A model generated the notes under the pieces. That model was not told the DNA's origin and did no database searches. It saw only the letters and a program-made list of their open reading frames with translations. This document shows, in pieces, positions 5,799-21,300 of a stretch of 64,000 bases of DNA (position 1 is its first letter; each line of letters starts with the position of its first letter). Made by a program: the position numbers and the translations under genes. The stretch lies in NCBI GenBank assembly GCA_021768625.1, contig JAETUM010000005.1, positions 1-64,000 on the forward strand, given 5' to 3'. The DNA comes from Candidatus Stoquefichus sp. Its GTDB lineage: Bacteria > Bacillota_I > Bacilli_A > Erysipelotrichales > Coprobacillaceae.

Positions 5799-8006
5799 AT
5801 GAAACATACTAGAATTGATCATAATTTAATAGAGTATATGTTGACTCTATTGGATTCCTCTAAAGATAATATAGATAATAATAAACAATCAAGTTCAATT
5901 CATTCATCAGACTTCTATAAAACAGAAATAGCATATGAAATTATACAATTTATGGATGAAATGCCAGGAGGATTTCTTATCTATCATGCTGATGGAAATG
6001 AAGAGATTATTTATGCTAATAATGCATTGTTACGTATATTTCAATGTGCTGATTTAAAAGAATTTCAAGAATTAACTGGTAATTCTTTTAGGGGAGTTGT
6101 GCATCCAGATGACTTAGATGCAGTGGAGAAAAGCATTGCGGAACAGATTATAAATAGTCAATACGATTTAGACTATGTAGAATATCGTATTATCCAAAAA
6201 AGTGGAGCAATACGTTGGATAGAAGATTATGGGCATTTTATTCATAGCAATTCTATTGGTGATATTTTTTATGTATTTCTTACTGATTGTACTGAAAAGA
6301 AAAATCAAATCATAGTAGAAAGAACAAATTGGCTTTATGAGCAGAAGAAAAAAGAAGAACAAATGCAAAGTCTTATTGAAGAATATGATAAAGAAAAGCA
6401 ATTGATTAATCGTGAGTATTTACGTCGCTTAGAAGTTATAGAGGGATTAAGTGTTCATTTTGACTCTATTCTTTATGTTGAATTAGATAATGATCTTGTA
6501 TTACCATATCGTTTAAATGATAGAATTCAAAACTTTTTTAAAGATAATAAACCGTGTCAATTTTCTCAATTTATATCAGAATATATCAATACATGGGTTT
6601 ATAATGAAGATCGTGAACAACTTCAAAAAGAAATTCAGCCTTCATTTATTATTCAAAAATTATTAGAGAGTAAGACATATTATGTTAATTACCGAATATT
6701 AACTGATGAAACAATACATTATTCGCGATTAAGAATTGTTAATGTTGGAAGAAAAGAAAATATATCTCAGATTGTTATAGGATATAGAAACATGGATGAT
6801 GAGATTGCACGGGAGATGACGCAAAATCAGATATTAGAAGATGCACTTAAAAAAGCCAAATTATCTAATGTGGCAAAAGATGTGTTTTTAGCTAACATGT
6901 CACATGATATAAGAACACCATTAAATGCTATTTTTGGATTTACAAAACTGGCCAAAAAGAATAGCCATGATAGTGATATCGTTAAGCAATATCTTGATAA
7001 AATTGAGGCATCGAGTCAAGAACTTTTAAATTTGATTGAAAAGGTTTTAGAATTATCACGCATTGAATCACAAGATATAAAGGAAGTCGAATGTAATTTA
7101 TATGACATTATTCAAGAAGCTTATCAAGCTCTTTTACCACGAGCTTTTCATAAAAATATAGAGTTTGTTTTAAAAGATAATGATTTAAAGTACGGTAATA
7201 TTTATGCTGATAGGAATAAGTTAAAGCAATGTTTTCATCATCTGATGAGCAATGCTGTGAAGTATACAAATTCTGGTGGAAGAGTAGATGTTGATATTAA
7301 GGAAATAAAGGATTTATCTAATGATTATGTTGTTTTTAAATTTATTGTTAAAGATACGGGTGTAGGGATTAGCCAAAAGTTCTTAGAACATATTTTTGAA
7401 CCATTTGAAAGAGAAAAGAATACTACGTTTAGTGGTATTTATGGAACAGGATTAGGATTGACTTTAACTAAGAATATTGTTGAAAAAATGAATGGAAATA
7501 TTGATGTTGAGAGTACTGTTGGAAAGGGTAGTACATTTACTATAACTTTACGTTTAAGAGTACAAAATCATTCAAAATTAAATTCTGTAGATACAAGAAA
7601 TATTATTAAGAGTTTAAAAGGTCAAAAGATTTTATTGGTTGATGATAATGAATTGAATTTAGAAATTGAAGTAGAAATACTTGAGGAGTTAGGTTTGGTT
7701 ATTGAAACAGCAACAAATGGAGAAATAGCTGTAGAAAAGATTAGAAATTCAAAATTAGATGAATATGCTTTTATTTTAATGGATATTCAAATGCCTGTTA
7801 TGGATGGTAGAAAGGCTACTGAAATTATTCGTTCTTTTGATAATCTAAGATTAGCTTCTATACCTATTATTGCTTTATCAGCAAATGCATTTGAGAGTGA
7901 TAGACAATTATCATTAAAATGTGGTATGAATGCTCATTTAACAAAGCCTATTAATATTGATGAATTACTTGAAATGATTTCTAAAATTATGGATATGAAA
8001 AGATAA
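5799..8006 (+). CDS. Soluble PAS hybrid histidine kinase with C-terminal receiver
   Basis: A 735-aa signalling protein. Residues ~50-170 form a PAS domain (PAS_3-like, with VVHPDDLD and a WIEDYGHFI strand). A charged coiled-coil-like region and a second, weaker sensor region follow. The HisKA domain contains NMSHDIRTPLNAI with the phospho-accepting His near residue 368. HATPase motifs are present (NAVKYT, DTGVGI, GTGLGL). A receiver domain (LLVDDNELN, phospho-Asp in LMDIQMPVMDG near residue 662) ends the protein. No membrane helix is visible, so it should sense a cytosolic signal. There is no output domain and no partner regulator next to it. Confidence 0.9.
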   Translation: MKHTRIDHNLIEYMLTLLDSSKDNIDNNKQSSSIHSSDFYKTEIAYEIIQFMDEMPGGFLIYHADGNEEIIYANNALLRIFQCADLKEFQELTGNSFRGVVHPDDLDAVEKSIAEQIINSQYDLDYVEYRIIQKSGAIRWIEDYGHFIHSNSIGDIFYVFLTDCTEKKNQIIVERTNWLYEQKKKEEQMQSLIEEYDKEKQLINREYLRRLEVIEGLSVHFDSILYVELDNDLVLPYRLNDRIQNFFKDNKPCQFSQFISEYINTWVYNEDREQLQKEIQPSFIIQKLLESKTYYVNYRILTDETIHYSRLRIVNVGRKENISQIVIGYRNMDDEIAREMTQNQILEDALKKAKLSNVAKDVFLANMSHDIRTPLNAIFGFTKLAKKNSHDSDIVKQYLDKIEASSQELLNLIEKVLELSRIESQDIKEVECNLYDIIQEAYQALLPRAFHKNIEFVLKDNDLKYGNIYADRNKLKQCFHHLMSNAVKYTNSGGRVDVDIKEIKDLSNDYVVFKFIVKDTGVGISQKFLEHIFEPFEREKNTTFSGIYGTGLGLTLTKNIVEKMNGNIDVESTVGKGSTFTITLRLRVQNHSKLNSVDTRNIIKSLKGQKILLVDDNELNLEIEVEILEELGLVIETATNGEIAVEKIRNSKLDEYAFILMDIQMPVMDGRKATEIIRSFDNLRLASIPIIALSANAFESDRQLSLKCGMNAHLTKPINIDELLEMISKIMDMKR

Positions 8007-8172: not shown

Positions 8173-9477
8173 ATGTCAATTTTATCTGGAATAGGAAAAG
8201 TGAAATTAGACGGTCAAAAGGGTTTAACAAAAGATAAACCTATTTTACCAATCGAAGCACCAGATGTTGTTTATATTCCCCTTGTCATAGGTACAGCAAC
8301 AGATTTTGATGTCCATGTAAAAGAAGGAGATCATGTTTGTATTGGAACAAAATTAGCAACTCGTAAGAGTATGTATGTTCCTATTTATTCATCTGTTTCT
8401 GGAACTGTCAAAGGAATAGAAAGACGTATGCATGCTTCAAGAAGATTACAAGAACATATTGTGATTGAAAATGATCATAAAGATGAAAGAGTGAAAGCTC
8501 TAGATATTCAAGATCCTGATTCAATGTCACAAGAGGATGTTTTTAATGCTATTAAGGAGTTAGGATTAGTTGGATTAGGAGGTTCAGGTTTTCCAACTTA
8601 CATTAAATATTCTAATCCTGAAAATATTGAAACAATTCTCATTAATGGAGTTGAATGTGAACCATTTTTAACAAGTGATCATTTAGCTATGAAGAGAGAT
8701 GTAAAAGCATTATTTGATGGTGTTCATTTCTTGATTAAAGCAGCAAATGCTAAAAATGCTATTATTGCAATTAAAGAACATAAGCCTGATTTGATGGAAT
8801 TATTAGTTGAAGAAGCTAAAAATTATGATAACATTGAACCACGTGAAGTTCCTGATCGCTATCCAATGGGATGGGAAAGAGTCGTTGTTGAAACTGTATT
8901 TAAAAAAGAATATGATAAGTTACCTGCTGAAATAGGTGTTATTGTTAATAACTCATCAACTGCTATTGCACTATCTAAAGGAATTAGAAATGGCGAACCA
9001 ATAACTCATCGTGTTGTCACTTTCTCAGGAAATGGATTAAAAAATCCACAAAATGTAGAAGTTGCAATAGGAACACCAGTCAATTATATTGTTGAAAAGA
9101 TTGGTGGTTATATAGATGATGATTGTGATGGTTTCTTATTAGGTGGAGGACCTATGATGGGAAAATCTGTCGCAAATGATTCATTTGTGATTTATTGTCA
9201 TAACAATGCTATTACTGTTATGAAAAAAGAAAATATAAAACCTTTACCATGTTTAAAATGTGGTGAGTGTACTTTACATTGTCCTGCTCATTTACAACCT
9301 GTTCGTATTATGCAAGCAGAAAAAGCAGCTAATGTTGAGTTGATTGAAAAATTAGATGTGACTCGTTGTGTTGAATGTGGTATGTGTACTTATATTTGTC
9401 CAAGTAAGATAGAAGTGACAGATATGGTAGCAAAGGCAAAACGTCGTTATCAATTAGCACAAAGAAGAAAAGGGTAG
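8173..9477 (+). CDS. rnfC: Rnf electron transport complex subunit RnfC
   Basis: RnfC is the peripheral NADH-side subunit of the Rnf complex, which couples ferredoxin:NAD+ electron transfer to ion pumping. The 434-aa protein has an N-terminal barrel-like part, the GLGGSGFPTYIK loop typical of the NADH/FMN-binding fold, and two 4Fe-4S motifs near the C-terminus (CLKCGECTLHCP and CVECGMCTYICP). Length is normal for Gram-positive RnfC. It is the first gene of a tight C-D-G-E-A-B operon; 13 bases separate it from rnfD. Confidence 0.95.
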   Translation: MSILSGIGKVKLDGQKGLTKDKPILPIEAPDVVYIPLVIGTATDFDVHVKEGDHVCIGTKLATRKSMYVPIYSSVSGTVKGIERRMHASRRLQEHIVIENDHKDERVKALDIQDPDSMSQEDVFNAIKELGLVGLGGSGFPTYIKYSNPENIETILINGVECEPFLTSDHLAMKRDVKALFDGVHFLIKAANAKNAIIAIKEHKPDLMELLVEEAKNYDNIEPREVPDRYPMGWERVVVETVFKKEYDKLPAEIGVIVNNSSTAIALSKGIRNGEPITHRVVTFSGNGLKNPQNVEVAIGTPVNYIVEKIGGYIDDDCDGFLLGGGPMMGKSVANDSFVIYCHNNAITVMKKENIKPLPCLKCGECTLHCPAHLQPVRIMQAEKAANVELIEKLDVTRCVECGMCTYICPSKIEVTDMVAKAKRRYQLAQRRKG

Positions 9478-9490
9478 AGAGGGGTATATT

Positions 9491-11650
9491 ATGAAGATTA
9501 CTATGCAAAGAACATCACCAAACTATCGTCAAAAACTCTCTACACATCGTATTATGAGAGATTTAACAATTGGTTTATTGGTGATTGTTGCTTGTTCATT
9601 AATTTGTCAATATATGATTGTAAAGTCAAACCCTATGCAAAGTGTAACAAAAGCAGCACTTATTTATGGTGTTTCTGTAGGTGTTGCACTTATTACAGAA
9701 ATTGTATGGGCTTTGATTCATAAATTAGATATTATCGAGCATTTAAAGAATAGTTTTCCATTGGTAACATCAATTATTTTTGCTTTAACATTACCAATCG
9801 GAACACCTTTATATGTTGTTGCTATAGGTTCATTTATTGCTATTTTCTTTGGAAAATTAGTTTATGGAGGATTTGGACAAAATATCTTTAATCCTGCTTT
9901 GGTAGGACGTGTTGTTGTTCATTTAGCCTATGGTGCATCATTAACAACAAGTTTACCAGTTAATGGTATTGATATTGCTACAAAAGCAACTCCTGCAACA
10001 ATGCTTGCTGGAACAAATTGGTTAGGTGGAGAAGGATTCACTTATAATTTATTTGATTTGTTTATTGGAACACATGCAGGTGCTTTAGGTGAAACATGTG
10101 CATTAGCAATATTGATTGTTGGTATTATTTTAGTTATCAGACATGTGTTTGATGCAAGAATACCAGTTGCTTATTTAGGAACTGTTCTTGTATTAAGTGA
10201 AGTATTCGCTTTAGTGAATGGTTTAGATCCTATTACTTATCCACTTGTTCATTTATGTATTGGTGGAGTTGTCTTTGGTGCAGTCTTTATGGCTACAGAT
10301 CCAGTGACATCACCATCCAGTCCATTAGGAAAAATTTTATATGGTATTTGTTTAGGATTCTTAACAATGATTATTCGTTTGAAAGCAAATTATCCTGAAG
10401 GTGTTTTATTCTCAATCTTAATTATGAATATGTTTACACCATTTATTGATTCAATGATTTTGGGAAGAACAAGTGAAAATACAACAAAACAATGGATAGC
10501 TATTGCATTAAGTTTATTAATTGCTGTAGCATGTGTCTTTGGTATTGGACAATCTTTGAAGAATCAATTAGAGACAGAAAAACAAGAAGCTATTAAGGCT
10601 GAAGAAGAAAAGAAAAAGAAAGAAGCTGAAGAAGCTGCTAAGAAACCAAAATGGAATGTTTTAAGTAAGATTAAGGGTGGATATTTAATGGAAACTTATG
10701 GATTTGGTGGTGAAGATAAACCAATGAAAGTTGAAGTTAAGTTATCTAAAGACAAAATTACTTCTGTAAAGGTTGTAGAATATACTGGAGAGACAGCAGG
10801 ATATGGGTTAGATTTAATTGAAGGTAAATCTACAAATGAAAAAGCCAAAGCTTTCTATGATAAAGTATTGAAAAATGGAATTGCAGTGAAAGATGTTGAA
10901 GGCGTTGATACTGCAACAGGAGCTACAATGACAACTAATGGTATTATGAATGCTATTAAAGGTGCTATTGAAGCGTACGAAAGTGAGCCAGTTGTTAAAG
11001 GCAATGTATATACTTATACATTAACAGCTAAAGGATTTGGTGGAGAAAATAATCCAATGAAGGTTGAAGTTTCTATTGATAAAGCAAAATCACAAGTTAC
11101 TTCTGTGAAAGTTGTTGAATATGCTGGAGAAACGGCAGGTTATGGTTTAGATCTTATTGAAGGAAAATCAACAAATGAGAAAGCCAAAGCTTTCTATGAT
11201 AAAGTCCTTAAAGGTAAATTTGCAACAAAAGATGTTGAAGGTATTGATACTGCAACAGGAGCAACTTTAACTACTAAGGGTATTATTGATGCTATTAATC
11301 AAGCTATTGAGAAAGTGAATGCTATCTTAGTTCCTAATAAAGATGGTTTTTATGAAATCAAAGCGAATGGTTTTGGTGGAGAAAATAAACCTATGACTGT
11401 ATTAGTTAAGGTTAATGGAGATAAGGTTACTGTAAAAGTAAAAGATTATGCTGGAGAAACAGCAGGATATGGATTAGATTTAATTGAAGGTAAATCTACA
11501 AATGAAAAAGCCAAAGCTTTCTATGATAAATATTTAAAATCATCATTTAGTAAGAAAGATATAGAAGGTGTAGATACTGCAACAGGAGCAACAATGACTA
11601 CGAAAGGAATCGTTGAAGCAATTGAAAAAGCAATTGCTACAGCTAATTAG
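9491..11650 (+). CDS. rnfD: RnfD fused to three C-terminal FMN-binding domains
   Basis: Residues 1 to ~360 are a standard membrane RnfD. They contain many helices, the KATPATML segment near residue 167 where RnfD usually carries covalent FMN, and the conserved MATDPVTSPSSPLGK loop. A charged EEEKKKKEAEEAAKKP linker then leads to three tandem FMN_bind domains of about 110 residues (roughly 396-496, 505-608 and 617-719). Each has GFGGE(D/N)(K/N)PM, GETAGYGLDLIEGKS and a TATGAT(M/L)TT motif matching the S/T-GAT covalent flavinylation site. RnfD normally ends at 310-360 residues, so this 719-aa form has doubled in length. RnfG follows as a separate gene. Confidence 0.93.
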   Translation: MKITMQRTSPNYRQKLSTHRIMRDLTIGLLVIVACSLICQYMIVKSNPMQSVTKAALIYGVSVGVALITEIVWALIHKLDIIEHLKNSFPLVTSIIFALTLPIGTPLYVVAIGSFIAIFFGKLVYGGFGQNIFNPALVGRVVVHLAYGASLTTSLPVNGIDIATKATPATMLAGTNWLGGEGFTYNLFDLFIGTHAGALGETCALAILIVGIILVIRHVFDARIPVAYLGTVLVLSEVFALVNGLDPITYPLVHLCIGGVVFGAVFMATDPVTSPSSPLGKILYGICLGFLTMIIRLKANYPEGVLFSILIMNMFTPFIDSMILGRTSENTTKQWIAIALSLLIAVACVFGIGQSLKNQLETEKQEAIKAEEEKKKKEAEEAAKKPKWNVLSKIKGGYLMETYGFGGEDKPMKVEVKLSKDKITSVKVVEYTGETAGYGLDLIEGKSTNEKAKAFYDKVLKNGIAVKDVEGVDTATGATMTTNGIMNAIKGAIEAYESEPVVKGNVYTYTLTAKGFGGENNPMKVEVSIDKAKSQVTSVKVVEYAGETAGYGLDLIEGKSTNEKAKAFYDKVLKGKFATKDVEGIDTATGATLTTKGIIDAINQAIEKVNAILVPNKDGFYEIKANGFGGENKPMTVLVKVNGDKVTVKVKDYAGETAGYGLDLIEGKSTNEKAKAFYDKYLKSSFSKKDIEGVDTATGATMTTKGIVEAIEKAIATAN
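10672..11648 (+). repeat. Three tandem FMN-binding domain repeats inside rnfD
   Basis: The equivalent GGAGA(G/A)AC sites start at 10787, 11126 and 11453, a period of about 330 bp. The core coding for GETAGYGLDLIEGKSTNEKA is nearly unchanged in all three units, even at many third positions, which points to recent duplication or ongoing gene conversion. Confidence 0.9.
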
Positions 11651-11662
11651 GAGGTAAGGAAT

Positions 11663-12196
11663 ATGAATAAAATAGTAAAATTAACTCTTTTCCTTGCAGT
11701 TGTTGCTGGACTTTCAGGAGCTGCTTTATCATTTGTTTATCAAATGACTGATCCAATTATTCAAGAAGCTGCTATTGCAAGTGAAAAAGAAAACTTAGTA
11801 AAAATATATACTTCTGGTGAAGAATTTAAAGCACTTGATACAGGTTTGGCTGATTATACTGCTTTACAAGGATGTTATGAAGCAAGCAGTGGTGGAACTG
11901 TAAAAGGTTATGTTTATAAATGTAGTGTCACTGGATATGGTGGAGCAAGTACTCCAATTGTTTATTTAGTTGCATTAGATCAAGATGGAACTTATAAAGG
12001 ATATGAAGTGATTGATTGTAGTGGAGAAACAAGTGGCTTTGGTTCTAAAGTTGCTGAAGATAGTTTCAAAAATGGAATTGTAGGAAAAAATATTGGTGAT
12101 TCTATTGATACAATTTCTGGAGCAACAATTTCTTCATCTGCTGTTGTTGATGGAATTAATCAAGCAACAGAACATTATAATGCTAATTTTAAATAA
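11663..12196 (+). CDS. rnfG: Rnf electron transport complex subunit RnfG
   Basis: RnfG carries a covalently bound FMN on the outer face of the membrane. The 177-aa protein has one N-terminal membrane helix (residues ~5-27) and an FMN_bind domain with GETSGFGS and SGATISS, whose Thr is the expected flavin attachment site. Length is normal to slightly short. GGAGG lies upstream, 12 bases after rnfD. With the three domains on RnfD, the complex would have four extracytoplasmic-type FMN_bind modules. Confidence 0.95.
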   Translation: MNKIVKLTLFLAVVAGLSGAALSFVYQMTDPIIQEAAIASEKENLVKIYTSGEEFKALDTGLADYTALQGCYEASSGGTVKGYVYKCSVTGYGGASTPIVYLVALDQDGTYKGYEVIDCSGETSGFGSKVAEDSFKNGIVGKNIGDSIDTISGATISSSAVVDGINQATEHYNANFK

Positions 12197-12209
12197 GGAG
12201 GGGACATAG

Positions 12210-12869
12210 ATGAAAAAATTAGATATTTTCAAAAAAGGTTTATTTATTGAAAATCCAATCTTTGTTTTATTGCTAGGTCTATGTTCAGCCTTAGCAATTA
12301 CAACATCACTTACAAATGCGATTGGTATGGGAATGGCTGTTACTTGCGTATTAATTATGAGTAATGTGATTATTTCTTTATTAAGAAATATTATTCCTAA
12401 TGAAATTAGAATTCCTGTTTTTATTGTTGTTATTGCAACATTAGTTAAATGTGTTCAAATGTTAATGAATGCATATACTCCAGCTTTATATGAATCACTA
12501 GGAGTATTCATTCCATTAATTGTTGTTAACTGTATTATTTTAGGTAGAGCTGAAAGCTTTGCTTCTAAAAATGGTATTGTTGATTCTTTATTAGATGCTT
12601 TAGGAATGGGATTAGGATATACTTTTGCAGTATTAGTTATTTCATTTTTTAGAGAACTTATTGGAACTGGTGGATTAAGTTTATATAATCCATTTGATGC
12701 AAGTCAAGTCATCTTTGATGTTAAGATTTTTGCAGATTATGCAGTTTCATTATTTACACAACCTGCTGGAGCATTTATGACTTTAGGTTGTATACTTGCT
12801 TTTGTTCAATTCTTAAAGATAAAAAAAGAAAAGAAAGCAAAGAAATTAAAAGAAGCGGAGGTAAAGTAG
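12210..12869 (+). CDS. rnfE: Rnf electron transport complex subunit RnfE
   Basis: RnfE is one of the two related six-helix membrane subunits that hold the central iron-sulfur site of Rnf. The 219-aa protein has helices throughout, conserved NP near the N-terminus (ENPIFVLLLGLCSALAI), a cysteine in GLCSA and one in VVNCIILGRAE, the pair expected to ligate the intramembrane cluster. AGGAGGGG precedes the start. The tail is basic and rich in lysine. Confidence 0.95.
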   Translation: MKKLDIFKKGLFIENPIFVLLLGLCSALAITTSLTNAIGMGMAVTCVLIMSNVIISLLRNIIPNEIRIPVFIVVIATLVKCVQMLMNAYTPALYESLGVFIPLIVVNCIILGRAESFASKNGIVDSLLDALGMGLGYTFAVLVISFFRELIGTGGLSLYNPFDASQVIFDVKIFADYAVSLFTQPAGAFMTLGCILAFVQFLKIKKEKKAKKLKEAEVK

Positions 12870-12870
12870 T

Positions 12871-13443
12871 ATGGAATTAGTCAGTTTATTTATTGGATTA
12901 ACTTTTGTTAATAATGTTGTGTTAAGTAAATTCTATGCTATTTGTCCATTATTAGGTGTTTCTAAGAAACCTAAAAATGCTTTAAACATGGGATATGCTG
13001 TTACATTTGTTATTTTTGTATCATCAATTGTGACTTGGTTAATATACAATTGTATATTAGTACCATTAAAAATTGAATATCTAGATTTAATTACATTTAT
13101 CTTAGTAATTGCTTCACTTGTGCAATTTGTTGAAATGTTCTTAAAGAAAACAAGTCCAGAGATTTATAAATCAATGGGTGTTTATTTACCACTTATTACA
13201 ACAAACTGTGCTGTATTAGGTGTTGCATTAGATAATATTAGTGCAGGATATAATTTAATTGAAGCTGCTGTAGCAGGTTTAGCTGTATCAATTGGATTTA
13301 CAATTGTTATTTATATTTTCGCTACAATTAGAGAAAGATTAGATATTGCTAATGTTCCAGAAAGTTTTAAAGGAACTCCAATTGCATTAATCACTGCTGG
13401 GATTATGGCTTGTGCTATAGCTGGAATCGCAGGTCTTGTTTAA
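12871..13443 (+). CDS. rnfA: Rnf electron transport complex subunit RnfA
   Basis: RnfA is the partner of RnfE. The 190-aa protein has six predicted membrane helices, the NNVVLSKFYAICPLLGVS motif near the N-terminus and LITTNCAVLGVAL in the middle; the two cysteines are the expected cluster ligands. It starts one base after rnfE ends, and its stop codon overlaps the ATG of the next small gene (TAATG), so translation is coupled along the operon. Confidence 0.95.
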   Translation: MELVSLFIGLTFVNNVVLSKFYAICPLLGVSKKPKNALNMGYAVTFVIFVSSIVTWLIYNCILVPLKIEYLDLITFILVIASLVQFVEMFLKKTSPEIYKSMGVYLPLITTNCAVLGVALDNISAGYNLIEAAVAGLAVSIGFTIVIYIFATIRERLDIANVPESFKGTPIALITAGIMACAIAGIAGLV

Positions 13444-13616
13444 TGAATATTTGGGCATTTGTTTGGATGGCTATTTTAGTAGCTGTCTTTATTGGAACAT
13501 ATTTATGGAATAAAAATACACCTCAACCAGAGGGGTGTGAAGATATGAGTGAATGTAGTGGATGCAATAATATTGCATGTGCACATCATAGTGCTCATCA
13601 TGAGGAGGAAAAATAA
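13443..13616 (+). CDS. 57-aa membrane-anchored Cys/His-rich peptide inside the rnf operon
   Basis: The ATG overlaps the rnfA stop (TAATG) and the last base overlaps rnfB. The product has one N-terminal membrane helix (residues ~4-22), a short linker, then Cys 32, 38, 41 and 46 and four histidines (AHHSAHH) in a hydrophilic tail. The arrangement recalls FeoB-associated Cys-rich membrane proteins, but the operon position argues for a role in Rnf. The cysteines could hold an iron-sulfur cluster or another metal; this is inference. A later GTG or TTG start would remove the helix and is less likely. Confidence 0.75.
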   Translation: MNIWAFVWMAILVAVFIGTYLWNKNTPQPEGCEDMSECSGCNNIACAHHSAHHEEEK

Positions 13617-13927
13617 TGAACATTAGTGCTGTATTGGCTTTGGTTGTTATTGGAGCAGTACTTGGGTTGATTTTGGGAATTGCTAATAAGTATCTTATTG
13701 TAGAAGAAGATAATCGTATTGGTGATGTAACTGAAATGCTTCCTGGGGCAAATTGTGGAGCATGTGGTTATCCAGGATGTTCTGGTTTTGCAACTGCTTT
13801 GGTTGAAGGAGAAGCAAGCAAAGTATCTACTTGCTTAGTAAGTAATGCTGAAGCAAGAGAAAAAATTGCTACTTATTTAAATGAAACTCCAGGACCAGAT
13901 GGAACAACTGTTAATGTCACAATTTAG
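13616..13927 (+). CDS. rnfB: Truncated RnfB with only the membrane anchor and first cluster motif
   Basis: RnfB normally accepts electrons from ferredoxin through several 4Fe-4S clusters. This 103-aa version keeps the N-terminal helix (residues ~4-24), the ANCGACGYPGC motif (Cys 47, 50, 55) and Cys 73, giving C-x2-C-x4-C-x17-C for one cluster. It then ends after about 30 residues. Clostridial RnfB usually continues with ferredoxin-type domains to 250 residues or more. A terminator begins within 20 bases, and no downstream frame continues the protein, so the short form appears real rather than frameshifted. Confidence 0.9.
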   Translation: MNISAVLALVVIGAVLGLILGIANKYLIVEEDNRIGDVTEMLPGANCGACGYPGCSGFATALVEGEASKVSTCLVSNAEAREKIATYLNETPGPDGTTVNVTI

Positions 13928-14125: not shown

Positions 14126-14281
14126 ATGAAAAAAGTTTTAAAAGAATTACAAGATTATTGCTTAAAGGTGGTGTCAGGATTATTCTTATATGTAGGTATA
14201 ACAACTGTTAACTCTTCATGTAATGCTATCTTTCATCAACCAGAAGAAAGCAAATCATTAGAACGTTTTAAAAATATCTAA
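14126..14281 (+). CDS. agrD: AgrD-like cyclic autoinducing peptide precursor, 51 aa
   Basis: A 51-aa product with the three-part AgrD layout. An amphipathic N-terminal helix (residues 1-25, ending KVVSGLFLYVG) is followed by a core with one cysteine (NSSCNAIF, Cys 32 to Phe 36) and an acidic, proline-containing tail (HQPEESKSLERF). Cys four residues before the junction would form the usual five-residue thiolactone ring (C-N-A-I-F). Its stop codon overlaps the agrB ATG by one base. It has a strong AAGGAGG site and the LytTR-type repeat upstream. The exact cleavage points are predicted by analogy only. Confidence 0.85.
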   Translation: MKKVLKELQDYCLKVVSGLFLYVGITTVNSSCNAIFHQPEESKSLERFKNI

Positions 14282-14841
14282 TGAATATAATTAATCAATT
14301 AATTGATCATAAGATTATTGCAGAAGAGGATAGGGATATATATGAATATGGATATGTTAATTTTAGATTATATGCTATTTTTCTCATATTTGTATTGTTA
14401 GGAAATATCATATTAAAGAATTATTTATATACGATCATATTTTTAATATGTGTATTTCAATTAAGAAGATTTAGTGGGGGATTACATTTAAGTGACTCAA
14501 AAAGTTGTTTGTTTTTATCAACAGTTGTCACACTTATTATTCCGATGCTGTGTCAATTTTATGATTTTAATATTATATATAAGTTATTCATTCAAGGTAT
14601 TATGCTGTTAATATACATATTTCTTCCGGTCGTTGATACACGTAATAAAATTTTAAATGATAATGAAAAGGTTGCTTATAAAAGAAAGTTAATGATATAT
14701 GTTTTTATTGATAATATCATTTTAATGATTTGTTTGTTGATGAAATTCAATGGTATATATATGGTTATTTTATATTCAATGCTTTTAGTACTTATATCTA
14801 ATATTGTTGGTTTATTATTAAAAAAGATAAATATTATGTAA
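14281..14841 (+). CDS. agrB: AgrB-like accessory membrane peptidase
   Basis: AgrB removes the AgrD tail and forms the thiolactone. This 186-aa membrane protein contains RRFSGGLHLSDSKSC. The catalytic pair is His 69 and Cys 76, seven residues apart as in staphylococcal AgrB (His 77/Cys 84), preceded by the conserved RRFSGG. About five or six hydrophobic segments are visible. Translation is coupled to agrD. No agrC or agrA follows; a hairpin follows instead. Confidence 0.92.
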   Translation: MNIINQLIDHKIIAEEDRDIYEYGYVNFRLYAIFLIFVLLGNIILKNYLYTIIFLICVFQLRRFSGGLHLSDSKSCLFLSTVVTLIIPMLCQFYDFNIIYKLFIQGIMLLIYIFLPVVDTRNKILNDNEKVAYKRKLMIYVFIDNIILMICLLMKFNGIYMVILYSMLLVLISNIVGLLLKKINIM

Positions 14842-14889: not shown

Positions 14890-15369
14890 ATGAAGGGAAA
14901 ACAAATAAAGAGATTATTAATTGCTTTTGTTATTTGTATGATAGCTATAACTTCTGTGAAAGCATATGTGGATTATCATGCAAATGCAGTACAAGTGGAT
15001 AATGGATATTATCCAAATGGAGAGTTTGGTAAATTAGACAAGAAGAAATCTCCTATTGTTAATATGACAATTTTATTAAAATTGTTAAATACAGCTAATT
15101 TTTGTGATGAAGATTGGTTTGAACAAGTTAGAGCATTATTATTTATTATGGGAGCTCAAGTTGATATGCATATTGAAGATGATGATGAATTTGTTCATGA
15201 ACTGATGGTTAAACAAAAGAGAATCGTTATTGCTTTAAAGGCTATTGAGGGAAAATATCCAGCAACACAGGTAAAACTGGAAGATATTGACGAATTAGAA
15301 GCAGCATATAATGATTATCATGATTATTATTATCAACATTATAATATGGGAGGTGTTGATAATGAATAG
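14890..15369 (+). CDS. Small secreted or membrane-anchored protein preceding rhs
   Basis: A 159-aa protein starting at ATG 14890 behind AAAGGAGAA; an in-frame start further upstream would lie inside the hairpin and has no RBS. It has a basic N-terminus and a hydrophobic signal or anchor (residues ~6-25, LLIAFVICMIAITSVKA). A soluble helical part rich in acidic and aromatic residues follows, ending in a Tyr-rich tail. No family is recognised. Its last eight bases overlap the rhs start, so the two are translationally coupled. It may help export or hold the Rhs protein; that is inference. Confidence 0.75.
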   Translation: MKGKQIKRLLIAFVICMIAITSVKAYVDYHANAVQVDNGYYPNGEFGKLDKKKSPIVNMTILLKLLNTANFCDEDWFEQVRALLFIMGAQVDMHIEDDDEFVHELMVKQKRIVIALKAIEGKYPATQVKLEDIDELEAAYNDYHDYYYQHYNMGGVDNE

Positions 15370-18300
15370 AATGATGAAATCTATAAAAAAGGTATTACTT
15401 ATTATTGTTACTGTTACTATTTTTATATCATCCTTTCAAATCTTTGGAGATGTTTATGCAGTAGAGAATAATAAGATTGATGATGAGAATACACATGGAG
15501 AATATAACAAAGATATTCAAGAAGAAGCGAGTCACCAAACGCAAATCAATAAAACAGATCCAGATGTTATTATCAAAGAACCAACAATTGTTGAGGACAC
15601 AAGTCGTTTTGATGATGAGGATGAATTAATTAATGAAAGAACAGAAAATTCTAAAACATATCAGCTAGATTCTGGGAAATATGTTACAGAATATTATTTT
15701 CAACCTGTTCATAAAAAAGAGGGAGAAAAGTATGTTGAGATTGATAATACTTTGGAAAAACAATCAAGTTTTTTTAGAAGTGCTCAATCATCATATTCTA
15801 ATAAAGATGGCTTATATGATTTTCAAGTGAATAATGGTTATATTGAAATAAGTGATTCAAATGATCAAATATTAACTATGATTCCAGAAGGAAATTTAAA
15901 GAATTTTGCAGTGAAAGAAAATGTTATTTTATATTCTTCAATATTAGATAATGTTGATCTTGAATATAGAGTTGAATCAAATTATATTACTCAAAATATT
16001 TATATAAATGGACAAGTCAATATTGATAGATATTCATTTCAATTAAATGGTGATCATTTCATTGCTGAAGTTAATGAAGAAGGGAATTTAGTTTTAAAGA
16101 AGGATACAGAGGTTATTTATACTTTTTTAAAACCATATTTAAAAGATAAAGAAGGAGTCAGAAATGAAGAAACTTCATATGAAGTAAAAAAGAATGATGG
16201 TGGATATGAAGTCACAATTGTTTTTAACGAGAAATGGTTGAATAAAAGTCAATTGGTTTATCCAGTTGCTTTAGCAAGTCAAGTAGAAGTGAATAATGCT
16301 GATGTTACAGAATTAACGTCTTCTTATATTCGTTCTGGTAGACCAGAGATAACAAGTCAATATTCTGATTTATTTGTAGGATATGATGATAATTATTATG
16401 GTGGTCAGGGTAGTGATATTAAAATAGCCAGAGCATTTATTTATTTTAAAATGCCTGATATTGGAAAGAATCAAAGAATAGAAAGTGCAAGTTTAAAATT
16501 ATATAAAGAACAGGACTTAGCTGATAACGAACTTAATGAGATTGATGTTTATAGTACAAATTCATATGTTGATCCAAGTACAGTGAATTGGAATAATCAG
16601 CCAAAGGATAAAACAAAAATATCAACCAAAGCTTTTACAAAGCCTAAAGGATGGAAGACTTTTGATATAACAAAACATGTAGAGAGTTTGATGAAAGGTG
16701 AGAAAAGAACATTAGTTTTACAAGTTACAGATGAAAGTTCAAAATATCATTGTAATGTTTTCAATACAGAATCATCAGCTTATTTACCAAAAGTAGAAAT
16801 TTATCATAGTGATGATTATGATATAGATCCATCATTAGATTTAGAAAAATTTGATAACACATTAAGAGTTTATGCAAAAGATGGACAATATTTTGAAGCA
16901 TTAAGTATGGAAGGAATAGCAAAGCCATATTCAAGTGTTCATTTTGATTTATATGCTAAAACAGGTGAAAAAGATTATTCTCTTATAAAATCATTAAATG
17001 CTGAGGACAAAGCTTCGCCTTATTTTATTGATCCCATACATATCAGTCATCCAATCAAAGATGTTCAACAATACAAAAAAGAAGAGGTCAATTATACAAC
17101 AAAGTATTTAAAATTTGGAGATATTCCAAAGTATGATACATTCTATGAATATAGAATGAAAGTAGAATACAATGGCAAGAAATCTACAAAAACATTAATA
17201 ACAGATGGTTTTATCTTATATAAAGTCAAATTGGGAGATAATCTTAAAACAATCGCTTCACATTATGGATTAAAAACAAATCAAATTATGAAAGATAACA
17301 ATATGAAATCTTCTAAGATTAAAGAAGACGATGTTTTATTCTTAAGATTTGCAAAAGATAATCCTAAAATACCAAAAGATGTCTATAAACCGCCAGTTAG
17401 AATCAGTACATATCAGGCAAAATATGTTTATAGAGGACCATCATGTTATGGATCATGTTCAGCAGGGGATCCAGTGAATACAAGTATTGGAAATTTCTAT
17501 CATGAATCAAAAGATTTCACAATGACTGATTTTGATGACTTGTTTTTAAGCAGAGTTTATAACTCTTATGGGGAAGATAACTCATCTATTTTCGGTATGA
17601 ATTTCTCTAGTAACTTTGAACAATATATTACCTATACAAAAGAAGATAATATGTTATTTTTTAGAGGTGATGGGAAAATATTAGAAATTTCTAAAAAAGA
17701 TGGGAAATATCAACCAAAGCTATCTGATAAGATAAAGGTTAAAGTTAATGATAAAACAACAGAGATTTATGATAAAACAGATGATATGACTTATATTTTT
17801 AATGAATATGGAATGTTATATCAAATCAGAACACATAATGGTTTTATCTCTCAAATTTATTATGATGATTATGGAATGATTGATTATATTCAAATAGGGA
17901 AAAAGAAAGTTAACTTTGAATATAATTCATATCATTTAGTGAAGTCTATAACATTACCAAATGATACCAAGATCCAATATGTTTATAATGCAGATAGGCA
18001 GTTAACTGAATTCATAGATGCGAATGGAAATAAAGAAAAATATGCTTATGATGAAAATGGAAAAATAAAAAGCATTACAGATAAAAAAGGAGCTGTTCTA
18101 GCTAATAACACGTATGATCAAAATGGTGTTGTTTTATCACAAAAAGATGCAAATGGAAATCTTGTAGAATTTTCCTATAATACTGGTTCTACAAAAGTAA
18201 CTTATAATGGGAAAGAAAGCGAAACATATGCATTAAACAGTGAATATAAGGTCTCTCGTATTTCTTATTCTGATGGAACATCAAAGTCATATACATATGA

Positions 18301-21300
18301 TGATGCAGGTTATTTGACTTCTGAAACAGATGAAAAAGGACAAAAAACAACTTATACATATGATAGCAATCACAATTTAACAGTCCAAGAAAATCCAGAT
18401 GGAACAAGTGAAAAGTATACATATGATAGTCAAGGAAATGTGACATCAATCACAAATAGAGACGGTACAAAAGAAACATATCAATATGATAATAACAATA
18501 ATCTTATTTATAAAGATAATAGTGATAGTCAAGGTATTCATTATGTTTATAATGATAAGAATTTAGTTATTAAGGAAACAAATGCTTTAGGAGTTTCTAA
18601 AGATTATGAATACAAAGACAATCAAATTGTTAAAATAACACATAGCAATGGACTTGTAGAATCTTTTGTCTATGATTCAATGGGAAATGTTATCAAGGAA
18701 TCTGATAATAAAGGACGTTCTACAAGCTATGTTTATGATAACAATAATCAGATTATCCAAAAAACAGATAGTTATGGAAATAGTGAATATTTCAAATATG
18801 ATGGAAATGGCAATGTTATTGAATCTATTGATAAATTAGGTTCAAAGATTACAAATACATATGATAAGAATAATAATCTTATCAAGACATCACAAGGTGG
18901 TCTTTCAACATCTAAGACTTATGATTATAAAAATAGAATGATCAGTGAAACGGATGAAGAAGGAAATACAGTTCGTTATGTTTATGATGTCAAAGATCAA
19001 GTTATTCAAGAAATAGATAAATATGGAAATATAAAAACAAATGAATATGATGTTTCTGGAAATCTCATAAAAACAACTGATGAAAAAGGGAATACAATAA
19101 CATATACATATAAAAATGATCAAGTCATCAAAGAAACAGACTCTTTAGGTTTAACAACATCATATGAATACGATCAATATAATCGTGTTATTAAAGAAAT
19201 CAATCCTCATAATAAAGTCATAACAACACAATATGATAGTCATGGAAATATTATAAAGACAGTCAATGAAAGAGGATTAATAAATACCAAAACATATGAT
19301 CAATATGATAGATTAGTGAAAGAAGTTAATGAACAAGGAATAATAATTACTTATACATATGATAAGTATAATCAACTTATTAAGAAGCAAGAAGATAACA
19401 AAGTAACAACATATGAATATGATGTTTATGGAAATCAAGTTAAAGAAACAGATACTTATGGACATACTCAAACAAAACAATACGATAAGTTAAATAGATT
19501 AGTGAAAGAAACGGATGAATTATCTGGAACAACAATTCATAAGTATGATGCACAAGGAAATGAAATTGAAACAATTGATGCAAATGGACATTCACAAAAG
19601 AAAGTCTATAATACAGATAGTTCATTAATGAAAGAAATAGATGCATTAGGAAATGAAACAATTATTTCTTATGATTCATTAGGAAGAGTATCAAAGCAAA
19701 CAGATGCATATGGAAATATAACTTCTCATACATATGATAAGTATGGAAATGTTCTTTCAACAGCTATCAATGATAAAGTCATTGAAGAAAAAGCATATGA
19801 TCAATATGGAAGAGTTGTTCAAACAACACAATTAAACAATATTGTTTTCACAACATATGATACACATGATCGTATTCTTAAAGAAGAGAACAAGACAACA
19901 GGTCTTATTACAAATAATGAATATGATAAGTATTCTAATGTTATAAAAACATATGATAATGGTGAAAAAGAAGAAACATATATCTATGATGACTATAACC
20001 AACTTGTATCATCTACAGATGCATATGGAAGAACATCTACAAATGTATATGATAAGTATGGACAAGTCATAGAAAAAGTTAATGAAGCGAATGAAAAGAC
20101 ACTTACTCAATATGATAAGTATGGAAATATAATCAGTGAAACAGATCATTTAGGATTAAAAACACAATACCAATATGATTTACTTCAAAGAAAAACAAAA
20201 GAAATTGTTAATAATGAAAAAACATTAACATATACTTATGATGCAAAAGGACAGTTGTTAAAGACACATGATTCTTCAACGAACACAGTAACGTCAAATA
20301 CATATGATGCAGTAGGTAATGTCTTAACATCAACAGATGCATTGAATCATCAAACAACATATGTTTATGATGCTAAAAATAGAGAAATCAAGACAACTGA
20401 TGCACTAGGGAATAGTACTTCTAAAGTTTATGATATTTATGATCATGTCATTAAGGAAACAGATGCATTAGGAAATAGCAAACAAACAAAGTATGATGTT
20501 TTTGGTAATGTTATACGAGAAGTTGATGAAAGAGGATTTAAGACAGAATATAAGTACAATGACAATCTTCAAAATATTGAAATTATTGATAAGAAGGGAA
20601 ATTCTTCAACATTTACTTATAATAAACAAGGATATCTTTCAAAACAAACAAATCAAAGTGGATATTCAACATTATTTGAATATGATTTATATGGACAAAA
20701 AGTTAAGGAAACAGATCCTAATGGAAATATAAGTACTTTTGAATATGATAAGTTAGGGAATGTTGTTAAGGAAACAATTCCAAACAAAATAACAGTTCAT
20801 CAATATGATGAATTAGGAAGACTTATTTCTACTCAAGAAAATGATGTTTATAAGATTCAAAATACATATAATGATAAGAATCAAGTGATTGAATCAACCA
20901 ATGCAATGAATTATAAAACATTATATACTTATGATATATATGGTAATGTTTTAACAGAGGATTTTGCAGGATATAAGACAATGAATACTTATGATCTTCA
21001 TCAAAATCTTATTAAGAAAGTTGAAAATGATCTTAAAACAACAACATATACATATAATGCATTAAATCAAGAAATAGAAACAAAGATTAATGATGTTATT
21101 CAAACAAAGAATCAATATGATGCTGTTGGAAATATCATTTATAAGTATGAAGAAGGAGTACAAACAAAATATACTTATGATAAACTCAACAGACAAAAAG
21201 AGATCTATTTTAATGAACTGGATGATAGAAGTCAGTATGTATTGGTAGGTTCTTACCAATATGATGAAACTGGAAATATCATAGAAGTGAAAGATGCATA

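What the first reader, a model, noticed from the sequence alone, without database searches (positions are those of the whole stretch)
10672..11648. RnfD carrying a triple FMN-domain tail
Three tandem FMN_bind repeats, each with a TATGAT(M/L)TT flavinylation-type motif, follow the membrane part of RnfD through a Lys/Glu-rich linker. With RnfG this gives four FMN_bind modules and could form a flavin wire that extends electron transfer outward from the membrane. Extracellular flavin-based electron transfer by flavinylated domains is known in Gram-positives; a fusion to RnfD in a shortened-RnfB complex is unusual. An FMN transferase (ApbE) is not in the window.
Basis: partly seen in the sequence, partly recalled or inferred. 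Interest (0 to 1): 0.76.

Follow-up and report, generated by a model that had tools for sequence, protein, structure and literature searches.

The report
Flavin arm on Rnf membrane subunit
A gut-type bacterium carries a variant of the Rnf membrane redox pump whose RnfD subunit has gained an extra membrane crossing and an outward-facing arm of three flavin-carrying domains, a layout that recurs in its relatives and could let the pump pass electrons to the cell exterior.

Summary
rnfD (9491-11650, 719 aa) is a complete RnfD core (PF03116) followed by three tandem FMN_bind domains (PF04205), each with a perfect DTATGAT flavinylation motif. Tools add five things. (1) An 11th hydrophobic helix (aa 335-353) follows the ten-helix core, whose C-terminus is cytoplasmic in solved Rnf, so the tail should lie outside. 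(2) The genome has ApbE and a separate small FMN_bind lipoprotein. (3) RnfB is only membrane anchor plus FdI cluster domain; FdII/III is gone. In 87 of 87 loci where both could be scored, short RnfB goes with the 11th helix and long RnfB without it; this is one evolutionary event. (4) The tail is recurrent but unstable (0-3 copies). Its domains are one pool with the extra domains of multi-flavinylated RnfG and swap with them (up to 99.7% DNA identity inside one operon); they are not copies of the canonical RnfG domain. (5) A Bacilli subclade has lost rnfG and keeps only an FMN-tailed RnfD. Best reading: a multi-FMN arm of a variant Rnf that can exchange electrons with the RnfD/RnfG flavins and pass them to extracytosolic acceptors. 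Anatomy is well supported; covalent flavin and electron export are inferred.

The parts
8173..9477 (+). rnfC, NADH/FMN and 2x[4Fe-4S] subunit, 434 aa
   Evidence: TIGR01945 345.2 bits over cut-off 245.95; Complex1_51K, SLBB, Fer4
9491..10465 (+). rnfD core, aa 1-325, ten-helix membrane domain
   Evidence: PF03116 E 1.1e-82; solved RnfD/NqrB chains align up to query aa 321-327; Foldseek best hits 9eri_D and 7zc6_D
9989..9991 (+). RnfD core Thr167, equivalent of the covalent-FMN threonine of known RnfD
   Evidence: T in 103 and S in 1 of 104 aligned RnfDs; invariant in A1; Thr153 carries FMN in C. tetanomorphum RnfD
10493..10549 (+). additional 11th transmembrane helix, aa 335-353
   Evidence: Kyte-Doolittle mean 2.52; helix 331-355 in the AlphaFold2 model; lies after the end of all solved RnfDs
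10565..10642 (+). K/E-rich helical linker, aa 359-384
   Evidence: helix in the AlphaFold2 model, pLDDT about 63-71
10685..10960 (+). FMN_bind domain 1, aa 399-490
   Evidence: PF04205; limits
10907..10927 (+). flavinylation motif 1 DTATGAT, acceptor T479
   Evidence: motif definition D-x-x-[S/T]-G-A-[S/T] from PMC12052999
11018..11299 (+). FMN_bind domain 2, aa 510-603
   Evidence: PF04205; limits
11246..11266 (+). flavinylation motif 2 DTATGAT, acceptor T592
11354..11626 (+). FMN_bind domain 3, aa 622-712
   Evidence: PF04205; limits
11573..11593 (+). flavinylation motif 3 DTATGAT, acceptor T701
11663..12196 (+). rnfG, single-FMN_bind subunit, 177 aa
   Evidence: PF04205 E 3.4e-14; TIGR01947 75.6 bits, under the cut-off of 102
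12107..12127 (+). RnfG flavinylation motif DTISGAT
   Evidence: sequence
12210..12869 (+). rnfE
   Evidence: TIGR01948 242.6 bits over cut-off 213.4
12871..13443 (+). rnfA
   Evidence: TIGR01943 242.9 bits over cut-off 229.3
13616..13927 (+). short rnfB, 103 aa: N-terminal helix plus one [4Fe-4S] (FeS, PF04060) domain, no polyferredoxin part
   Evidence: PF04060 E 2.4e-14 and nothing else; TIGR01944 67.3 against cut-off 68.7, matching model positions 5-92 of 190

Best explanation
The feature is an extracytosolic, multi-FMN arm built onto RnfD of a variant ('short-RnfB') Rnf complex. The RnfD core ends in the cytoplasm as in known Rnf; an added 11th helix takes the chain back out, a helical linker follows, and three FMN_bind domains hang outside like beads. 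ApbE, a lipoprotein encoded elsewhere in the genome, should attach FMN to T479, T592 and T701. Electrons that already surface in every Rnf cycle at FMN(RnfG) and FMN(RnfD T167) can hop to the tethered FMNs, and from there to extracytosolic acceptors such as the genome's free FMN_bind lipoprotein. The complex then acts as a branched Rnf that can export electrons as well as run the ferredoxin/NAD loop. Shown: domains, motifs, extra helix, ApbE, recurrence, domain exchange with RnfG. Inferred: flavinylation, outside location (strong), electron hopping, and export and acceptor (weakest).
For: Domains and motifs. Tail model mean pLDDT 90.2; its best PDB match is CbFMN4 domain 1 (8p2b, Foldseek prob 1.00, TMt 0.69, E 7e-3), a domain of a multi-FMN protein, with NqrC chains also matched (prob 0.90-0.93). 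Topology: ten TM helices with C-terminal residues in the cytoplasm in solved RnfD, plus one extra helix here; the 10-11 loop is net positive (mean +2.3, positive in 91 of 97) and the 15 residues after helix 11 average -0.8. Flavin-acceptor position is T or S in 99 of 99 RnfD-tail domains. ApbE in the genome. Tail domains form one pool with the extra domains of RnfG, an extracytosolic subunit, and exchange with them: at least 10 label changes forced, best split puts all 82 RnfG first domains together, 99.7% and 95.2% DNA identity between the RnfD and RnfG C-terminal domains of L060 and L014. A small FMN_bind lipoprotein-sized gene occurs in 16 of 18 tail-bearing and 0 of 16 tailless RnfD genomes of the family. 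Multi-flavinylated RnfG has been proposed to branch electrons to outside acceptors (PMC8238504, passages).
Against: No experiment. No extracellular reductase or classical acceptor was found next to the operon; the lipoprotein lies on another contig in an unrelated gene context, and the lipoprotein/tail link is confounded by kinship. The tail is gained or lost at least 11 times, so it is not essential to the complex. In RnfG-less relatives the tail probably works inside the U-shaped path, not as an exporter. AlphaFold2 pTM for the whole protein is 0.53, so domain placement is unknown. Only 49 of 99 tail domains keep the strict D..[ST]GA[ST] string, though the window's three do.
Confidence: 0.5

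Rival explanations
1. The arm serves the internal Rnf cycle only: its FMN domains are tethered helpers or spares for RnfG, carrying electrons between the RnfA/E cluster and FMN(RnfD), with no export.
For: In eight operons rnfD is followed by rnfE after 39-136 bp with no rnfG, and RnfD carries one or two FMN_bind domains; in G343 and G395-G397 the RnfD tail is the only FMN_bind protein in the genome. The TM-helix-linker-FMN layout resembles that of RnfG.
Against: In the window a normal RnfG is present next to three tail domains. Tail domains are not copies of the canonical RnfG domain; they group with RnfG's extra domains. Copy numbers up to 3 (tail) and 5 (RnfG) exceed what a shuttle needs.
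Confidence: 0.27
2. The extra flavins are an electron buffer or oxygen scavenger at the membrane surface, without a dedicated acceptor.
For: A purified three-FMN protein (SaFMN3) has one redox potential (-184 mV) and its reduced form uses O2 (PMC10339131, abstract and passages). The window's three domains are likewise similar to one another (70-75% identical).
Against: No specific support here; the co-occurrence with an FMN_bind lipoprotein suggests a partner.
Confidence: 0.12
3. The tail is a nearly neutral by-product of unequal recombination between rnfD and rnfG repeats; flavins attach but do nothing useful.
For: Frequent gain, loss and exchange of domains.
Against: Acceptor T/S kept in 99 of 99 tail domains; dN/dS about 0.31-0.38 between window repeats; recurrence over many lineages.
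Confidence: 0.08
4. The tail sits in the cytoplasm and is not flavinylated by ApbE.
For: C-terminal residues of ten-helix RnfD are cytoplasmic.
Against: An 11th helix stands after the core in 97 of 103 RnfDs scored, all except the six with a long RnfB, with a mostly positive loop before it; the domains are shared with extracytosolic RnfG.
Confidence: 0.03

Closest known systems
Multi-flavinylated RnfG in RNF clusters (Meheust et al. 2021, PMC8238504)
   Same: Extra FMN_bind domains added to an Rnf subunit on the extracytosolic side; proposed second electron path to outside acceptors; here the extra domains of RnfG and RnfD are one sequence pool.
   Different: There the domains are on RnfG; here they are on RnfD, through an added transmembrane helix, while RnfG is single.
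Canonical Rnf complex (C. tetanomorphum 7zc6, A. woodii 9eri)
   Same: RnfA, C, D, E, G homologues in one operon; RnfD core fold and FMN threonine.
   Different: RnfB lacks the FdII/III ferredoxin part; RnfD has 11 instead of 10 helices and a flavin tail of over 330 residues.
NQR/RNF-like two-subunit complexes (PF03116 fused to PF00175)
   Same: RnfD/NqrB core with a fused redox domain; proposed outward electron flow.
   Different: Their fused domain is cytosolic and NAD-binding, and the core flavin threonine is lost; here the fused part is FMN_bind, predicted outside, and the threonine is kept.
Free multi-FMN proteins SaFMN3 and CbFMN4 (PMC10339131)
   Same: Three or four similar FMN_bind beads with DxxxGAT motifs; closest solved fold to the tail (8p2b).
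   Different: Those are separate proteins with no membrane pump attached.

Membership tests
Canonical Rnf complex | RnfC, D, G, E, A homologues in one operon | tested here: met
   RnfC, D, E, A pass NCBIfam cut-offs; RnfG matches at 75.6 bits, under its cut-off of 102; order C-D-G-E-A-B
Canonical Rnf complex | RnfD core with ten TM helices and covalent-FMN threonine | tested here: met
   PF03116 and TIGR01946, solved homologues, Thr167
Canonical Rnf complex | RnfB with C-terminal ferredoxin domain (two or more further [4Fe-4S] clusters) | tested here: not met
   103 aa, only PF04060; matches TIGR01944 5-92 of 190. Hence filed as an Rnf variant, not as canonical Rnf
Canonical Rnf complex | ferredoxin:NAD+ oxidoreductase activity coupled to ion transport | not testable with these tools
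   needs biochemistry
Multi-flavinylated proteins | more than one FMN_bind domain | tested here: met
   three
Multi-flavinylated proteins | ApbE motif D-x-x-[S/T]-G-A-[S/T] in each and an ApbE in the genome | tested here: met
   motif
Multi-flavinylated proteins | extracytosolic location | tested here: inconclusive
   predicted from helix count, charge and solved homologues; no experiment
Multi-flavinylated proteins | covalent FMN shown | not testable with these tools
   needs biochemistry
RnfG | tail reaches the RnfG model cut-off or groups with canonical RnfG domains | tested here: not met
   TIGR01947 78.0 against 102 (the window's own RnfG also fails, 75.6); tree split separates all 82 RnfG first domains from the tail domains, SH-aLRT 88, one stray RnfG extra domain
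NQR/RNF-like complex | PF00175 NAD-binding domain fused to PF03116 | tested here: not met
   no PF00175 hit in RnfD
Listeria-type flavin EET locus | Ndh2, EetA/B, quinone enzymes, PplA | not tested
   not searched; the gene list is recalled

The most novel reading that the evidence does not exclude
A Bacilli-wide branch of Rnf lost the ferredoxin-docking half of RnfB and gained an 11th RnfD helix on one branch. It then became a platform on which FMN modules are plugged onto RnfD or RnfG and swapped between them. In its fullest form it is an ion-pumping electron exporter to the cell surface; in its most reduced form RnfG is dispensed with and RnfD carries its own flavin shuttle.
Probability: 0.35. 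Interest if true: 0.82.

Novelty: new variant of a known kind. Interest (0 to 1): 0.62.

Why it matters
If true, gut Erysipelotrichia and related Bacilli own a cytochrome-free way to let an energy-conserving pump reach electron acceptors outside the membrane. The RnfG-less members would also offer a natural minimal Rnf in which the moving RnfG shuttle is covalently tethered to RnfD. The shortened RnfB asks how ferredoxin docks at all. All three are testable with purified complexes.

Tried and rejected
Chance or low-complexity repeat: rejected. Pseudogene or frameshift fusion with rnfG: rejected; the ORF is open and intact, and rnfG has its own ATG with an AGGAGG site just upstream. Cytoplasmic tail: made unlikely. 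Tail as a copied RnfG: rejected by the domain tree, with the caution that 84 columns for 212 rows leave many forks open and that long branches meet. RnfG merely moved elsewhere in the RnfG-less genomes: checked. G343 and G395-G397 have no other FMN_bind; G010, G064 and G111 have one lipoprotein each without an RnfG-type anchor (so has G055, whose operon I did not check for rnfG); G034 has a 130-aa single-helix FMN_bind protein. A control outside the class failed: the 'phylum' sample listed genomes of the same class only. Outside the class I have L084, L085 and the solved structures.

Counts by hand from listings: one search shows 31 of 110 RnfD-bearing genomes (of 295 searched) with an RnfD frame of 460 aa or more. 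The listing was cut, and a long frame does not prove FMN_bind (L141, 657 aa, had no hit with my profile). The family counts (18 of 34 with tail; lipoprotein 16 of 18 against 0 of 16) are mine, the lipoprotein being taken as a stand-alone FMN_bind frame of 118-135 aa. One of the 18 (G400) has the gene split into two frames and its lipoprotein split too. With a looser size limit (any stand-alone FMN_bind frame under 160 aa) three of the 16 tailless genomes (G422, G423, G425) would also count.

Rows dropped: one search left out four loci fetched twice or nearly so (L138, L139, L147, L140); one search left out L138, L139, L147, L030, L031 and L135_G; one search left out 14 duplicates or contig-end fragments. 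RnfD in L142 was cut wrongly and redone. The D-to-E gap of L135 (275 bp) comes from overlapping gene calls and is not counted as RnfG-less.

Own-genome PF00890 search gave only short matches of about 35 positions, uninformative for a fumarate-reductase partner. PFOR is present, so reduced ferredoxin can be made.

Full report
What is there. The window holds an Rnf operon, rnfC-D-G-E-A-B, at 8173-13927 on the plus strand. RnfD is 719 aa. Its first 325 residues are an ordinary RnfD core: PF03116 at aa 7-324, E 1.1e-82, TIGR01946 over its cut-off. The core's flavin threonine T167 is T in 103 and S in 1 of 104 RnfDs aligned. After it come a hydrophobic helix (aa 335-353), a K/E-rich helix (aa 359-384) and three FMN_bind domains, each with the motif DTATGAT. 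The motif meets the D-x-x-[S/T]-G-A-[S/T] rule stated in the ApbE review PMC12052999 (passages read). The repeats are 70-75% identical in protein with dN/dS of about 0.31-0.38.

Structure. AlphaFold2 on 32 sequences gives mean pLDDT 85.1 and pTM 0.53. Foldseek matches the core to solved RnfD of A. woodii and C. tetanomorphum. The tail alone models at pLDDT 90.2. Its best PDB match is domain 1 of the multi-FMN protein CbFMN4 (8p2b; probability 1.00, TM 0.69 on the target, E 7e-3); NqrC chains are the other matches of high probability (0.90-0.93); no match passed E 0.001.

Topology. In the C. tetanomorphum structure paper (PMC9588780, passages) RnfD has two five-helix halves, and both its 20 N-terminal and 10 C-terminal residues lie in the cytoplasm, against RnfC. 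All solved RnfD/NqrB chains align only up to window aa 321-327, so helix 11 is extra and should bring the tail outside. Over 97 RnfDs with this helix the loop before it is net positive (mean +2.3; positive in 91) and the 15 residues after it average -0.8 (negative in 51, positive in 25). These sequences are related, so the p-value printed there is not a fair one.

RnfB. The window RnfB (103 aa) has only the N-terminal helix and the PF04060 cluster domain. That corresponds to the anchor plus FdI of C. tetanomorphum RnfB (1-29 and 35-95); the larger part (97-268, FdII and FdIII) is missing. Among 87 loci where both proteins could be scored, all 81 with short RnfB (87-149 aa) have RnfD helix 11, and all 6 with long RnfB (260-268 aa) lack it; in 16 more loci helix 11 is present but no RnfB was found in the stretch. 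On the RnfD tree the RnfB state changes once, so this is one co-inherited event, not 87 independent ones. Within the window's own family the three standard operons whose RnfB I read (L144-L146: RnfD 304-309 aa, RnfB 260-263 aa) belong to the other type.

Distribution. A genome-contig scan brought 80 loci, nearly all Erysipelotrichia or related Bacilli by record title. In the window's family, 34 of 43 genomes have RnfD. By frame length and FMN_bind hits, 13 are standard (308-329 aa), 3 have frames of 365-388 aa and no FMN domain, 5 have a one-domain tail, 11 two and 2 three, the window's included (one two-domain case is split over two frames). On a tree of 93 RnfD cores, 61 have a tail; presence/absence needs 15 changes, at least 11 forced by well-supported branches. 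The tail is thus a repeatedly gained or lost trait of a short-RnfB branch.

Where the domains come from. I took 224 FMN_bind domains from RnfD tails and RnfGs. The acceptor position is T or S in 99 of 99 tail domains and in 124 of 125 RnfG domains, the exception being a gap in one row. The strict seven-residue motif holds in only 49 of 99 and 69 of 125. In a tree of 212 of them all 82 first domains of RnfG fall on one side of one branch (SH-aLRT 88, one stray extra domain), while RnfD-tail domains and the second-to-fifth domains of RnfG are intermixed (23 label changes, at least 10 forced). In several genomes the RnfD-tail domain and an extra RnfG domain of the same operon are nearest relatives. 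In L060 they are 99.7% identical over 369 nt and in L014 95.2% over 375 nt. These two are MAG contigs, so an assembly artefact cannot be excluded for L060 alone; seven well-supported mixed clades make the pattern general. So the tail is not a copied RnfG; it shares a pool of add-on modules with multi-domain RnfGs of the kind reported in PMC8238504 (passages).

RnfG-less relatives. In eight operons of one subclade (L067, L071, L074, L124-L128) rnfE follows rnfD after 39-136 bp with no rnfG, and RnfD carries one or two FMN_bind domains; RnfD of L067 and L074 passes the Pfam cut-off for both families. In genomes G343 and G395-G397 no other FMN_bind protein was found. In G010, G064 and G111 one further lipoprotein exists, and in G034 one small anchored protein, none in the operon. 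If those complexes work, the RnfD tail must do RnfG's job. This is the best evidence that a tail domain can reach the core's electron path, and it also feeds the main rival.

Genome context. One ApbE lies on contig C13, with a lipoprotein-type signal, directly downstream of a lipoprotein with a degenerate FMN_bind (18.6 bits, cut-off 22). The only other FMN_bind gene over the cut-off is a 119-aa lipoprotein on C60. A stand-alone FMN_bind frame of that size (118-135 aa) is found in 16 of 18 tailed and 0 of 16 tailless RnfD genomes of the family, and in one genome without RnfD (Fisher p 7e-8 ignoring kinship). PFOR is present, so reduced ferredoxin is available.

Mechanism. In solved Rnf the electron passes the extracytosolic FMN of RnfG and the FMN of RnfD (PMC11889175 and PMC12174285, passages). 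A tethered set of FMNs beside them can take electrons from that point. I commit to a branched Rnf with outward export as the most likely use (0.5), with the internal-shuttle role next (0.27). Flavinylation, hopping and the acceptor are inferred.

Literature. Searches for RnfD with FMN_bind or flavinylation, Rnf with Erysipelotrich-, RnfD-RnfG fusion, the Pfam pair, short RnfB, and flavinylated or multiheme Rnf gave no paper that I could see describing an RnfD-FMN_bind fusion or a ferredoxin-domain-less RnfB. In the passages read of PMC8238504, PMC11334425 (and its preprint PMC10979944), PMC10339131, PMC12052999 and PMC12174285 I saw none either. Supplements could not be read, and the 2081 multi-FMN proteins of PMC8238504 may well include such RnfDs unremarked.

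Verdict. Real, recurrent, and apparently undescribed as such; a new variant of the Rnf and multi-flavinylated-protein kinds, with function still inferred.

Noticed in passing
own genome, L122:2311-3252 (contig C13): Lipoprotein directly upstream of apbE with two degenerate FMN_bind-like halves (AGCT in place of SGAT; 18.6 bits, under the Pfam cut-off). Similar small lipoproteins with a GVT or GCT motif occur in G010, G055, G064 and G111.
   Followed up: partly
L083:5992-9145 (Acholeplasma record): Between rnfD and rnfE lie two RnfG-like genes (346 and 331 aa) sharing a near-identical C-terminal half and lacking an SGAT motif; the genome has no FMN_bind hit at all, yet RnfD has helix 11 and RnfB is short.
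   Followed up: no
L129 (G097): A reduced cluster rnfC-rnfD-rnfA with no rnfE, rnfB or rnfG found in the stretch and no FMN_bind in the genome.
   Followed up: no
L130-L132 (family f17): RnfD of 734-762 aa with two FMN_bind domains and longer spacers, larger than the window's.
   Followed up: no
window 14281-14841: AgrB-type gene (PF04647, E 2.5e-28) downstream of rnfB, followed by a 173-aa protein without a Pfam match.
   Followed up: no
window 15311-23884: 2857-aa protein with 13 RHS-repeat stretches, a LysM and a DUF6531 domain.
   Followed up: no
window 5799-8006: Hybrid sensor histidine kinase (PAS, HisKA, HATPase, receiver) just upstream of rnfC.
   Followed up: no
G400, contig C1 near 2157387-2159203: rnfD reads in two frames (400 and 241 aa), as does its FMN_bind lipoprotein; possibly sequencing errors in a one-contig assembly.
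   Followed up: no
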